39,965 bases of DNA, from positions 1 to 39,965 of the forward strand of contig JAHFUA010000012.1 of NCBI GenBank assembly GCA_023265315.1, read 5' to 3'. Position 1 is the first letter of the stretch, and the number at the start of each line of letters is the position of its first letter. The position numbers and the translations under genes are program-made. The stretch comes from Acidobacteriota bacterium. GTDB taxonomy: Bacteria > Acidobacteriota > Terriglobia > Terriglobales > Acidobacteriaceae. Positions 7,095 to 11,886 of the stretch are shown in pieces. Under the pieces are notes generated by a model. The model did not search any database, was not told where the DNA came from, and worked only from the letters and a program-made list of their open reading frames with translations.

Positions 7095-8522
7095 ATGGTT
7101 ACGCCCAACCTCAGCGCCGGGGCCAGCGAGATGCGCCTGGAGAAGCGCGGGGTAGCCTTCAACTCCGTGCTGGCGGCCACGGCCATCACCGCGTTGAAGG
7201 TGGTGGTCGGCATCACCACCGGCAGCCTCGGCATCCTCTCCGAGGCCGCGCACTCGGGGCTGGACCTGATCGCCGCCGGCATCACCCTGTTCTCAGTGCA
7301 AGTTTCCGACAAGCCCGCCGACGCCGACCACCAGTACGGCCACGGCAAAGTCGAGAACTTCTCCGCCTTCCTCGAGACCGGCCTGCTGCTGCTCACGTGC
7401 GTGTGGATCGTATACGAGGCCACCCGGCGGCTGTTCTTCCGTCATGTGGAGATCGAGCCCAGCCTGGCGGCGTTCCTGGTGATGTTCGCTTCGATGGCGG
7501 TGGACGGGTGGCGGTCGCGGGCGCTGAAACGCGTGGCCGTCAAATACGACAGCCAGGCTTTGCAAGCCGACGCCCTGCACTTTTCCACCGATATCTGGTC
7601 GAGCGGCGTGGTCATCCTGGGACTGCTGCTGGTCTGGCTGGGCCGGCGGCTCGCGATCGGCTGGCTGCGCGACGCCGACCCCATTGCCGCTCTGTTCGTC
7701 GCTGGAGTGGTGGTGTACGTGGGTTCGCGTCTGGCGCGCCAGACCGTCGACGCGCTGCTGGATGCCGCTCCCACGGGAGTGCGCGCGCGCATCATCGGCG
7801 AGGTGGAGCGCGTGGAAAGCGTGCTGGACGTGGACCGTGTCCGCATTCGCCGCGCCGGCAACCGCTATTTCGCCGATCTCTCGGTGGCGCTGCGCCGCAA
7901 CGTCACCTTTCTCAAGTCAGGGCAGGTGGCGGAAGATGTGACGGAAGCCGTCCACCGCGTTCTGCCCAATGCCGACGTGGTGGTGCACCCCATCCCGCGC
8001 GCGCCGCAAGAGGAGAACCTGTTCGATCGCATCCGCGGCGTGGCCGCCCGCAGCAACCTCAACGTGCACGAGGTCAGTGTTCAGGACCTGGGCGGCTTCC
8101 TGCACGTGGAGCAGCACCTGGAACTCGGCGAGCATATGCCCTTGAAGGACGCGCACGATCTGGTGACCCGCCTGGAAGGCGAAATCCGCGCCGAGGTGCC
8201 GGAGATCTCCTCCATCCTGACCCACATCGAGAGCGAGCCCGGGCACATCGAGACCACCGACGAGATCCGCGATACCGCCCTGGAGAGCCGGCTGCGCCGC
8301 ATCGGGCGTGAATTCCCCGAGATCCTCGACATGCACGAGATCACGCTTAAAAAAGCCGGCAGCCACATTAATGTCTCCTGCCATTGCACGCTTCCTGACA
8401 CGCTTCCTCTCTCGCGCGTGCACGACATCTCCACCGAACTCGAAATCCGCTTCAAGCAGGAAGCCCCCGAGCTGTTCAAGGTGCTCATCCACACCGAGCC
8501 GCAGACCGACAATCGGAGATGA
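7095..8522 (+). CDS. Cation diffusion facilitator with three C-terminal dimerisation domains
   Basis: An inner-membrane divalent metal (Zn/Fe/Co/Mn type) exporter of the CDF family. Six TM segments span about residues 20-215. Metal-site segments are visible in TM2 (HSGLDLIAA), the following loop (HQYGHGKVE) and TM5 (HFSTD, the HxxxD site). The 475-aa length exceeds the usual 290-330 because the cytosolic ferredoxin-like ZT-dimer module is present about three times: roughly residues 220-295 (ending VVVHPIP), 300-375 (ending ILTHIESEPG) and 380-470 (ending VLIHTEPQ). The extra modules may add metal sensing or oligomerisation, which is an inference. The metal cannot be named. Confidence 0.93.
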   Translation: MVTPNLSAGASEMRLEKRGVAFNSVLAATAITALKVVVGITTGSLGILSEAAHSGLDLIAAGITLFSVQVSDKPADADHQYGHGKVENFSAFLETGLLLLTCVWIVYEATRRLFFRHVEIEPSLAAFLVMFASMAVDGWRSRALKRVAVKYDSQALQADALHFSTDIWSSGVVILGLLLVWLGRRLAIGWLRDADPIAALFVAGVVVYVGSRLARQTVDALLDAAPTGVRARIIGEVERVESVLDVDRVRIRRAGNRYFADLSVALRRNVTFLKSGQVAEDVTEAVHRVLPNADVVVHPIPRAPQEENLFDRIRGVAARSNLNVHEVSVQDLGGFLHVEQHLELGEHMPLKDAHDLVTRLEGEIRAEVPEISSILTHIESEPGHIETTDEIRDTALESRLRRIGREFPEILDMHEITLKKAGSHINVSCHCTLPDTLPLSRVHDISTELEIRFKQEAPELFKVLIHTEPQTDNRR

Positions 8523-9057: not shown

Positions 9058-9453
9058 ATGGAAAACCAGCTCAATGCACGCCTTAGGCGATGCGCGCAGG
9101 AACTCTGGGCGATTCAGACAGAACTGGTCAAAGCGGCCGCAACGGTAAGCACGTCAGAATCCGACAATGTCTGCGTTTATCAAGGCGTGGATAATGATTC
9201 ACTCCAAGATGTGAAGGGCGCTGTCGACCAGATGCGACACCTGCTGTGGGTTCATTTAGAAGAGGCCAGAAAGAAAAGGGGATTTGATTTAGAGGAGGTT
9301 ATTTTCGAATATAGAGTCCGCCGTGTAGTTGAGATGGTTCGACTAATTCAGTCCGATATACAACGTCAGAAAAGGTCATTGACACCGGAGCTCTTCAAGA
9401 TGGCCGAAGGTCTGAGGTCAACAGTTGACGAACTACTCTCGTTAGCCAAGTGA
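9058..9453 (+). CDS. Hypothetical protein, 131 aa
   Basis: Not recognised. The protein is soluble, charged and mostly helical in character, with no TM segment or signal peptide; residues 60-130 (RHLLWVHLEEARKKRG, RRVVEMVRLIQSDIQRQK) have amphipathic or coiled-coil periodicity. Codon use is visibly less GC-biased at third positions than in its neighbours, which fits horizontal acquisition. It sits immediately after the duplicated hairpin element and before a short terminator-like hairpin, so element plus gene may be one transferred unit. The open frame and ATG are clear; expression is unproven. Confidence 0.6.
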   Translation: MENQLNARLRRCAQELWAIQTELVKAAATVSTSESDNVCVYQGVDNDSLQDVKGAVDQMRHLLWVHLEEARKKRGFDLEEVIFEYRVRRVVEMVRLIQSDIQRQKRSLTPELFKMAEGLRSTVDELLSLAK

Positions 9454-9487: not shown

Positions 9488-9689
9488 AATCTGTAACGAC
9501 CCCCGTTTTTACTGACTTTTCGCCTTCGGTTTGAGGTTGCCCGGAACTCTGTGCGTCGTGGTGGCTTGCGGGCGTGTCGGCCCGATAACCGATTACTGTT
9601 GATAAATCCCCTTCTCACTAATTGGGAGACACCCCCCATCCTGCAGAAAAAAAGCAGCCGTCCGCCGCGCTGCGTCGTCAGATGCGCTT

Positions 9690-9935
9690 ATGACCGAGAT
9701 CGCAAAGCGTATCCTTTTGTTCAGCCAGCCCGGCTGACCTCCGTGCTCCACGGCGCGAGCCTACCTCTCGGCGAGAGGCATCCCGTTCGAAGAACGCGAC
9801 GTGAGCGATGATTTCTCGGCCGTCCGCGAGCTGGTGGAGACTTACCATAGCCGCGCGACCCCGACCGTAGTCATCGGCGACGAGGTGGTCATCGGGTTTG
9901 ATCCGCAACGCATTGACGAACTCCTCAGCTCCTAA
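9690..9935 (+). CDS. Glutaredoxin-like selenoprotein (UPPC), in-frame TGA
   Basis: An 81-codon gene that conventional calling breaks at a TGA (9735-9737, codon 16). Read through, it gives a complete small glutaredoxin/NrdH-like thiol-redox protein: beta strand RILLFSQPG, then U-P-P-C (Sec16, Cys19), helix STARAYLSARG, strand IPFEERDVSDD, helix FSAVRELVETYHSR, cis-proline segment ATPTVVIGDEVVIGF and C-terminal DPQRIDELL. The TGA falls exactly where relatives have the first Cys of CPPC. The frame is open and family-like on both sides, and a hairpin fitting a bacterial SECIS follows. A nonsense mutation is the alternative but would have to hit this one codon. The ATG lacks a clear Shine-Dalgarno. 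The 3' end overlaps the EamA gene. Confidence 0.85.
9764..9778 (+). promoter_or_regulatory. Candidate bacterial SECIS hairpin
   Basis: CCTCTC (9764-9769) pairs with GAGAGG (9773-9778), leaving a GGC loop. Thirty-two nucleotides separate the TGA from the loop, and the loop starts with G. This agrees with the usual bacterial pattern as I remember it: an upper stem of several pairs, a G in the first two loop bases, and about 16-37 nt from the UGA. A second hairpin, CCGTG/CACGG (9741-9753), lies nearer but its CTC loop has no G. Confidence 0.6.
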
Positions 9936-10875
9936 CCATCCCCTGCGCGGATACCTGTCGATCGCGGTCGCGGCGCTGTGCTGGGGCGCCGCCGCAACTT
10001 TGGGGAAGGCCGTGTTCACCGGCCGGCTGCTCGCCGGATCGCAGGCGTTGCGGCCTATCGACCCGCTCGTTCTGACGCAAACGCGGGTCAGCTTCGCCCT
10101 CCTGATCCTGGCGCCTCTGGTGCTGGCGCGCGGCGGCCGGGCCGCGCTCTCGCTTCCTCCGCGCGACGTGCTCCGTTGCATCGTGCTGGCGGTTTTGGGT
10201 GTTGCTGGCTCCAACTACTTTTACTTTTACGCTATCGCCAAGACCACGGTGGCCACCGCCATCATCCTGCAGTACACAGCGCCGGTATGGGTGCTGCTGT
10301 ACCTGGTGGCGCGGCGGCAGCAGCGCGCGACCGCGCAGCGCGTGATCGCAGTGGCGGCGGCGGTGGCCGGGAGCGCACTGGTGGTCGGCGGACATCTGCG
10401 GGCGAACCCCGCCGGGGTGGCCGCAGGACTGGGCGCCGCCTTCTCCTTCGCCTTCTACAACCTCTATGGCCACAGCCTGCTGGCGCGCCTCGACCGCTGG
10501 CGCGTGCTGGTGTACACCTTGCTGGGCGCGACCGTGTTCTGGCTGCTGGTCAATCCGCCCTGGAAGCTCGTGGCCGCCCGCTATTCCGGCCGCGAATGGG
10601 GTTTCCTGCTGGTATTCTCGGTGTTGTCCGTGCTCCTGCCGTTCTCCTTCTACTTTGCGGGATTGCAGTATCTGGACGCGACGCGCGCCATCGTCACCAG
10701 TTGCCTGGAGCCGGTGTTCGCCATGGTGCTGGCGGCGGCGTTCGTGGGCGAATCCTTGCAGCCGGTTCAGGCGGCGGGGATCGCCGTCGTGCTGATTGCC
10801 ACTGTCCTGGTGCAGCTCCAGTCCCGGCGTGGCGGAGAACGCCCCACGGATGTCCGTGTATCGATGGTGGAGTGA
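9898..10875 (+). CDS. EamA/DMT family transporter, copy 1
   Basis: A ten-TM drug/metabolite exporter-type permease (325 aa) with two EamA repeats, about residues 15-155 and 170-310. The typical end-of-repeat segment SNYFYFYAIAKTTVATAIILQ and the second-repeat SFYFAGLQYLDATRAIVTSCLEP are present. It starts at TTG 9898 inside the preceding glutaredoxin gene; TTG 9913 is an alternative that still leaves a 23-bp overlap, so coupling is likely. It is closely similar along its whole length to the next gene, a tandem duplication. The substrate is unknown (amino acids, purines and other metabolites in the family). Confidence 0.9.
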   Translation: MIRNALTNSSAPNHPLRGYLSIAVAALCWGAAATLGKAVFTGRLLAGSQALRPIDPLVLTQTRVSFALLILAPLVLARGGRAALSLPPRDVLRCIVLAVLGVAGSNYFYFYAIAKTTVATAIILQYTAPVWVLLYLVARRQQRATAQRVIAVAAAVAGSALVVGGHLRANPAGVAAGLGAAFSFAFYNLYGHSLLARLDRWRVLVYTLLGATVFWLLVNPPWKLVAARYSGREWGFLLVFSVLSVLLPFSFYFAGLQYLDATRAIVTSCLEPVFAMVLAAAFVGESLQPVQAAGIAVVLIATVLVQLQSRRGGERPTDVRVSMVE

Positions 10876-10878
10876 GTC

Positions 10879-11886
10879 ATGGGAGACCGCGGGAGCGTCA
10901 TCCGCGAGGTGCGTGAGACCACACCCGGGCACCACCGGCACGCCCTTCGTGGCTATCTGGCGATTATGGCCGCCGCGCTCTGCTGGGGCGCCGCCGCCAG
11001 CCTGGGCCGGGCAGTATTCACCGGACGCCTCCTCGGCGGATCCCATGCCCTGCGGCCCATCGGCCCGCTCATCCTCACCCAAACGCGCATCAGCTTCTCT
11101 TTCCTCATCCTGGCCCCGCTGGTGCTTTGGCTGGGCGGCCGCTCCGCCCTGGCGATGGGCAAGAAAGAAGTGCTGCGCTGTTTCGTGCTGGGAATCGTCG
11201 GCATGTCGGCGGCCAACTTCTTCTACTACGTGGCCCTCGCCAAGACGTCCGTGGCCACCGCCATCGTCCTGTTCTACACCGCGCCGGTGTGGGTGCTGTT
11301 GTATCTGCTGGCGCGAGGCCAGCAGCGCGCCACCGCGCGCCGGGTCGGCGCCGTGGGGGCCGCGGTGGTGGGCTGCGGACTCGCCATCGGCATCGGCGGA
11401 CCTGCGCACTTGCGCCTGAACGGCCTGGGATTGGCCGCGGGCCTGCTGGGTGCCGGCGCCTTCGCCTTCTACAACGTGTATGGCCACAGCATCCTGGCGC
11501 AGCATGAGCGCTGGCGCGTGCTGGTGTACGCCTTCTTCGGCGCCACCCTGTTCTGGATGGTCGTGAACCCGCCCTGGGCCATCGCGGCGGCGCGCTACTC
11601 GGCTGGAGAATGGGGCTTCATGGTGGTGTTCGCGGTGGTCTCGCTGCTGCTGCCGTTCTCCTTCTACTTCGCGGGACTGCAGTACCTGGACGCCACGCGC
11701 GCGGTGGTGACCAGTTGCCTGCAGCCGGTGTTCGCCATCCTGTTCGCGGCGGCGTTCATCGCCGAGTCGTTGCACTGGCTGCAAGCAGTGGGGATTGTGA
11801 TTGTGCTGGCCGCCAGCGTGGCCATCCAGATCCCGGATAAGGGCGGCGAAGCGCCTACGGATGTGCGGCTGTCTTTGGCGGAGTGA
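10879..11886 (+). CDS. EamA/DMT family transporter, copy 2
   Basis: A 335-aa paralogue of the gene immediately upstream (3 bp between stop and ATG). Both share the opening LRGYL..AALCWGAAA, the internal VFTGRLL.GS.ALRPI.PL.LTQTR and the SFYFAGLQYLDATRA stretch near the end. This copy has a longer hydrophilic N-terminus (about 25 residues, HHRH). Ten TM segments and two EamA repeats are visible. Tandem DMT pairs sometimes act as heterodimers, but each protein here is full length and could act alone. Confidence 0.92.
   Translation: MGDRGSVIREVRETTPGHHRHALRGYLAIMAAALCWGAAASLGRAVFTGRLLGGSHALRPIGPLILTQTRISFSFLILAPLVLWLGGRSALAMGKKEVLRCFVLGIVGMSAANFFYYVALAKTSVATAIVLFYTAPVWVLLYLLARGQQRATARRVGAVGAAVVGCGLAIGIGGPAHLRLNGLGLAAGLLGAGAFAFYNVYGHSILAQHERWRVLVYAFFGATLFWMVVNPPWAIAAARYSAGEWGFMVVFAVVSLLLPFSFYFAGLQYLDATRAVVTSCLQPVFAILFAAAFIAESLHWLQAVGIVIVLAASVAIQIPDKGGEAPTDVRLSLAE

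What the first reader, a model, noticed from the sequence alone, without database searches (positions are those of the whole stretch)
9690..9935. Unannotated selenoprotein: glutaredoxin-like UPPC with a TGA as the first redox residue
Reading through one TGA (9735-9737) gives a full 81-residue glutaredoxin/NrdH-like protein. The TGA stands exactly at the first cysteine of the CPPC redox motif, and the other half (Cys19) is intact. The regions before and after the TGA are both family-like in one frame, which a random nonsense mutation or noncoding DNA would not explain. A hairpin CCTCTC-GGC-GAGAGG lies 32 nt after the TGA with a loop-leading G, consistent with a bacterial SECIS. Conventional gene callers lose the gene and extend the downstream EamA gene into it. 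Sec-containing small glutaredoxins are known in some bacteria; one next to a DMT exporter pair in an acidobacterium would be a notable addition.
Basis: partly seen in the sequence, partly recalled or inferred. Interest (0 to 1): 0.9.

Follow-up and report, generated by a model that had tools for sequence, protein, structure and literature searches.

The report
Unannotated selenocysteine glutaredoxin-like protein

Summary
The finding is confirmed. Window 9690-9935 encodes an 81-residue glutaredoxin/NrdH-like redoxin with TGA (9735-9737) at the first cysteine of a (U/C)PPC site. The genome carries selA, selB, a Sec tRNA (UCA), and a selD that itself holds an in-frame TGA; two peroxiredoxins have TGA at the peroxidatic position. 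Thirty-eight homologous sequences have TGA at exactly this residue, and both sides of it are under purifying selection. U-form genomes have Sec machinery in 31 of 33 cases (the exceptions are 61-75% complete). Six close CPPC homologues form one clade, and five of those six genomes lack it. A hairpin (CCTCTC-GGC-GAGAGG, loop 32 nt after UGA) shows compensatory changes and reduced synonymous change, and is absent from CPPC homologues. In the window's clade the gene sits in a conserved CDF-(OsmC)-Grx-EamA neighbourhood. Sec-glutaredoxins are already described, so this is a new member. What may be new is that homologues use two SECIS registers (loop at +32 or +22/23) that share one pivot strand. 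Selenium incorporation was not measured; the reductant (TrxR rather than glutathione) and the targets are inferred.

The parts
9690..9935 (+). Sec-containing glutaredoxin/NrdH-like redoxin, 81 aa with Sec16, stop TAA included
   Evidence: homologues with TGA at the same residue
9735..9737 (+). in-frame TGA, predicted Sec16, first residue of UPPC
   Evidence: aligned to Cys of CPPC homologues
9744..9746 (+). TGC, resolving Cys19 of UPPC
9764..9778 (+). bSECIS-type hairpin CCTCTC-GGC-GAGAGG, apical loop 9770-9772, 32 nt after UGA
   Evidence: conserved and covarying in 20 U-form homologues; not in Cys forms; reduced synonymous change; fold
9913..10875 (+). EamA-family DMT transporter; start TTG 9913 (or TTG 9898) overlaps the Grx 3' end; neighbour conserved in 19 of 20 clade loci
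10879..11886 (+). second EamA-family transporter, paralogue of the first
7095..8522 (+). cation diffusion facilitator (Cation_efflux + ZT_dimer), upstream neighbour conserved in at least 15 of 20 clade loci
9058..9453 (+). 131-aa ORF without a Pfam match, in the place where most relatives have an OsmC-like gene

Best explanation
The locus encodes a selenoprotein redoxin of the glutaredoxin/NrdH/Cp9-like group. UGA 9735-9737 is read as selenocysteine by SelB and Sec-tRNA(UCA), directed by the hairpin 9764-9778 (strongly supported by sequence, not measured). The selenolate of Sec16 attacks a substrate disulfide or an oxidised peroxidase, and Cys19 resolves the mixed bond to a Sec16-Cys19 selenenylsulfide (inferred from the family mechanism). 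The oxidised protein is most likely re-reduced by thioredoxin reductase rather than glutathione, since no gshB was found and its closest solved relative, BC3987, groups with Cp9/NrdH redoxins (inferred). Likely clients include the genome's own Sec-peroxiredoxins (inferred). It is expressed with or next to a DMT exporter and, in relatives, OsmC and a CDF transporter; the meaning of that linkage is not shown.
For: Frame intact except TGA; Grx domain. Complete Sec machinery in the same genome, with TGA in selD at the expected N-terminal site and in two peroxiredoxins at the peroxidatic site TPGU / TPTU. TGA at the same residue in 38 homologous sequences, no scattered stops in close relatives. U-forms accompany Sec machinery: selB 11 of 12 genomes, selA 20 of 21, exceptions being incomplete genomes. 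pN/pS 0.30 before and 0.37 after the TGA. Hairpin: 91.9% of cells paired against 45-71% when slid, 8 cells with both sides changed, Cys forms 50%; pS 0.36 in hairpin codons against 0.62-0.68 elsewhere. Rare Arg AGA (3 of 159 Arg codons in window ORFs) is kept in 14 of 20 homologues at the hairpin. Ungapped full-length match to B. cereus BC3987 (PMC3720550). No gshB.
Against: No peptide or 75Se data. The window's hairpin by itself is modest (p=0.029), and one relative, L055/L077, breaks one pair of it. No Rfam match, though none is expected for a general bSECIS. Misses the NCBIfam cut-offs for YruB (80.4 of 88.55) and Uxx-star (56.2 of 66). The reductant and targets are untested; only gshB of TIGR01380 type was sought.
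Confidence: 0.95

Rival explanations
1. It is a pseudogene: a CPPC glutaredoxin inactivated by a Cys-to-stop mutation (TGC/TGT to TGA).
For: A single substitution TGC to TGA would do it; a second Grx-family gene without a stop exists in the genome.
Against: The same TGA in 38 homologous sequences across the phylum, with low pN/pS after it (0.37); complete Sec machinery; conserved hairpin.
Confidence: 0.01
2. The UGA is read through as an ordinary amino acid (Trp, Cys) by code change or suppression, not as Sec.
For: UGA-Trp codes exist in some bacteria (general knowledge).
Against: TGA appears to serve as the ordinary terminator of the Grx gene in relatives such as L068 and L072; tRNA-Sec UCA and selA/selB are present; the in-frame TGAs read sit at redox sites (SelD, Prx).
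Confidence: 0.02
3. It is a Sec redoxin, but glutathione-dependent (a true glutaredoxin) rather than thioredoxin-reductase-dependent.
For: The C. oremlandii Grx1, a native selenoprotein (PMC7642778), is probably the second-best solved relative (7c10/7c12; the chain-to-paper link is mine); other routes to glutathione or another low-molecular-weight thiol were not tested.
Against: No gshB at E<=0.001, while control genomes ring; best solved match is the CPPC redoxin BC3987, which groups with Cp9/NrdH redoxins (PMC3720550).
Confidence: 0.25

Closest known systems
Sec-containing glutaredoxin (Grx, PF00462, UxxC; e.g. Geobacter sulfurreducens WP_010943784.1, Clostridium oremlandii cGrx1)
   Same: Small Grx fold, U at the first redox position, resolving Cys, UGA recoding; described as a selenoprotein family in PMC1794560, PMC9312934 and PMC13188914.
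   Different: UPPC motif, GFDP C-terminal region, no gshB in the genome; the conserved CDF/OsmC/EamA neighbourhood was not in the text I read.
BC3987-type CPPC redoxin of Bacillus cereus (PDB 3zij/3zit) and Cp9/YruB redoxins
   Same: Full-length ungapped alignment, CPPC site, Ser/Thr four residues before the first redox residue (PMC3720550).
   Different: Sec in place of the first Cys; below the TIGR02196 (YruB) cut-off.
Uxx-star family glutaredoxin-like (seleno)protein, NF041212
   Same: Grx-like small protein with U at the first position; second-best NCBIfam score, 56.2 bits.
   Different: Below its cut-off of 66 bits; the window protein keeps the second Cys.

Membership tests
Bacterial selenoprotein (any) | in-frame UGA aligned with Cys of homologues and with UGA in others | tested here: met
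Bacterial selenoprotein (any) | selA, selB, selD and tRNA-Sec in the genome | tested here: met
Bacterial selenoprotein (any) | bSECIS: loop of 3-9 nt, G in the first two loop positions, loop 16-37 nt from UGA | tested here: met
   3-nt loop GGC, 32 nt, 6-bp stem; criteria from PMC13188914
Bacterial selenoprotein (any) | Sec shown in the protein (mass spectrometry or 75Se) | not testable with these tools
   needs cells or expression
Glutaredoxin PF00462, Sec form (UxxC) | Pfam glutaredoxin domain over the curated cut-off with UxxC site | tested here: met
   57.3 bits against 22.9, UPPC
Glutaredoxin PF00462, Sec form (UxxC) | glutathione-dependent reduction | tested here: inconclusive
   no gshB match; other thiol pathways and activity not tested
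YruB/Cp9 redoxin TIGR02196 | score over 88.55 bits | tested here: not met
   80.4 bits
Uxx-star NF041212 | score over 66 bits | tested here: not met
   56.2 bits
NrdH redoxin TIGR02194 | score over 85.75 bits, C-[VMI]-Q-C motif, class Ib RNR operon | tested here: not met
   40.1 bits, UPPC motif, neighbours are transporters

The most novel reading that the evidence does not exclude
The SECIS of this redoxin family has moved inside a conserved reading frame without losing selenocysteine. In the window's clade and in one member of another family of its order (L084) the loop lies 32 nt after UGA (CCTYTC-GGN-GARAGG). In more distant homologues it lies at 22-23 nt (GCGAAAGA-GTT-TCTTTCGC). The same CTTTC/CTCTC strand is the 3' arm of one hairpin and the 5' arm of the other, and L026 and L058 can form both, as if a strand-swapping intermediate allowed the shift.
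Probability: 0.5. Interest if true: 0.6.

Novelty: new member of a known kind. Interest (0 to 1): 0.45.

Why it matters
It adds a widespread Sec redoxin with a conserved gene neighbourhood in Acidobacteriota, a phylum listed with only 3 selenoprotein families and 4 selenoproteins in the 2006 survey (PMC1794560). Such genes are easily lost in annotation. The CPPC clade, in which five of six genomes lack selA or selB, is a clean natural case of Sec/Cys exchange, and the two SECIS registers make the question of how a SECIS moves within coding sequence directly testable.

Tried and rejected
Pseudogene, code change and chance frame were tested and rejected. Rfam scan of 9500-10100 gave nothing. Plasmid tblastn gave only 33-41% redoxins; the best of them (Acetoanaerobium, L052), unannotated in that record, proved to be a Cys form. 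My first reading of minus-strand loci was not reverse-complemented and was redone. MsrA as a Sec partner, as in C. oremlandii: the own-genome MsrA has no in-frame stop, so that Sec-Sec pairing is not indicated. The +1.1 kb EamA offsets are hit ends, because those hits start inside the Grx frame; they are not distant genes. No structure prediction was run, since the fold is clear from Pfam and from solved relatives.

Full report
Observation. Window 9690-9935 (+) is an 81-codon frame interrupted only by TGA 9735-9737. The product is a full-length glutaredoxin-fold redoxin: PF00462 57.3 bits. A whole-genome scan with the family finds this place with '1 TGA' inside. The TGA takes the place of the first Cys of CPPC, and Cys19 is intact.

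Can the cell make selenoproteins? Yes. The window's own assembly (95% complete, 182 contigs) has selA (C114, 565 bits), selB (C114, 378 bits), selD (C181, 356 bits, itself with an in-frame TGA near the N-terminus) and tRNA-Sec with anticodon UCA (C120), all over curated cut-offs. Two further selenoprotein candidates are peroxiredoxins with TGA at the peroxidatic site...NTPGUT... and ...NWTPTUS...; a third TGA-bearing AhpC/TSA match (C104) was not read.

Homologues. In 247 genomes of the phylum and 399 of the class, most of the best matches carry one TGA. Reading them with the genome-contig hits, 38 U-form sequences (one pair identical, possibly one species sampled twice) place TGA at exactly the first redox residue, while six close homologues have CPPC. 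The extra stops in G444 and G495 are the natural C-terminal stops; only the remote L043 has a further in-frame TAG. The six Cys forms make one supported group (98/98), though the tree rests on 76 columns and its root is arbitrary, so the direction of exchange is not settled.

Sec machinery follows the codon. U-form genomes: selB over cut-off in 11 of 12 and selA in 20 of 21; the exceptions are 75% and 61% complete. Close Cys forms: G139 has no selB over cut-off; G504, G512, G594 and G432 have no selA over cut-off; G474 does. Four more distant matches without stops (G465, G518, G447, G533) also lie in genomes with selA, so Cys forms do occur beside Sec machinery.

Selection. Across 20 U-form relatives pN/pS is 0.30 before the TGA and 0.37 after it, so both halves are kept as protein. 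Synonymous change drops to pS 0.36 in the hairpin codons against 0.62 for the whole stretch after UGA and 0.68 beyond the hairpin. The Arg codon there is AGA in 14 of 20, although AGA is 3 of 159 Arg codons in window ORFs. This is constraint on the nucleotides, beyond the protein.

SECIS. CCTCTC-GGC-GAGAGG meets the published bSECIS constraints (PMC13188914). In the window alone p=0.029 against synonymous recoding; most relatives give lower values, down to 0.001. On 20 sequences 91.9% of cells pair, against 45-71% when slid by 1-3 columns. Three pairs show changes on both sides, including CG to UA in three sequences and UA to GC in one. Some of this covariation is shared ancestry. The Cys homologues pair at 50%, like their slid controls. 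L055/L077 breaks one pair.

Register shift. Outside the window's order the same family has a different hairpin, GCGAAAGA-GTT-TCTTTCGC, with the loop at 22-23 nt. One strand is shared: it is the 3' arm there and the 5' arm in the window's clade. L026 and L058 can form both. This is my reading and has not been tested in a model or by experiment.

Neighbourhood. In 19 of 20 clade loci an EamA gene follows closely or overlaps. In 15 of 20 an OsmC-like gene precedes, and in at least 15 a CDF transporter lies upstream (loci are short). None of this is seen in the six Cys-form loci. The window lacks OsmC within the searched stretch and has a 131-aa ORF in that place.

Mechanism. Shown by sequence: UGA at the catalytic residue, recoding machinery, conserved hairpin. 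Inferred: Sec16 as the attacking residue, Cys19 as the resolving one, TrxR as reductant. The last rests on the absence of a gshB match, and on the full-length ungapped match to B. cereus BC3987, a CPPC redoxin that groups with Cp9/NrdH redoxins (PMC3720550). That paper links CPPC redoxins and Cp9 to peroxiredoxin reduction, which fits the Sec-peroxiredoxins here, but no pairing was tested.

Known or new. Sec-Grx is an established family (PMC1794560; PMC13188914 and PMC9312934 list PF00462 UxxC), with C. oremlandii cGrx1 studied structurally (PMC7642778). No paper found in the library describes this acidobacterial locus; the library is partial.

Noticed in passing
L091 (G000:C114:76576-76962, -) and L092 (G000:C123:10247-10645, +): Two peroxiredoxin-family frames with TGA at the peroxidatic position (TPGU, TPTU): further selenoprotein candidates of the same genome, possible partners of the redoxin.
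   Followed up: partly
G000:C104:19542-19934 (-): A third AhpC/TSA match with one in-frame TGA, not read.
   Followed up: no
L017 (G000:C181:5117-6061, -): selD of this genome itself carries an in-frame TGA at the N-terminal Cys/Sec site (KAAGUASK).
   Followed up: yes
L043 1501-1722 (G005:C193): Remote homologue with TGA at the redox site and an additional in-frame TAG (FLS*HDIEF): decayed copy, sequence error or another recoding.
   Followed up: no
L026 and L058, 60 nt after the UGA: Both can form either of the two overlapping SECIS-like hairpins (loop at +22 and at +31), possible intermediates of a register shift.
   Followed up: partly
window 9058-9453 (+): 131-aa ORF with no Pfam match stands where relatives have an OsmC-like gene.
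   Followed up: partly
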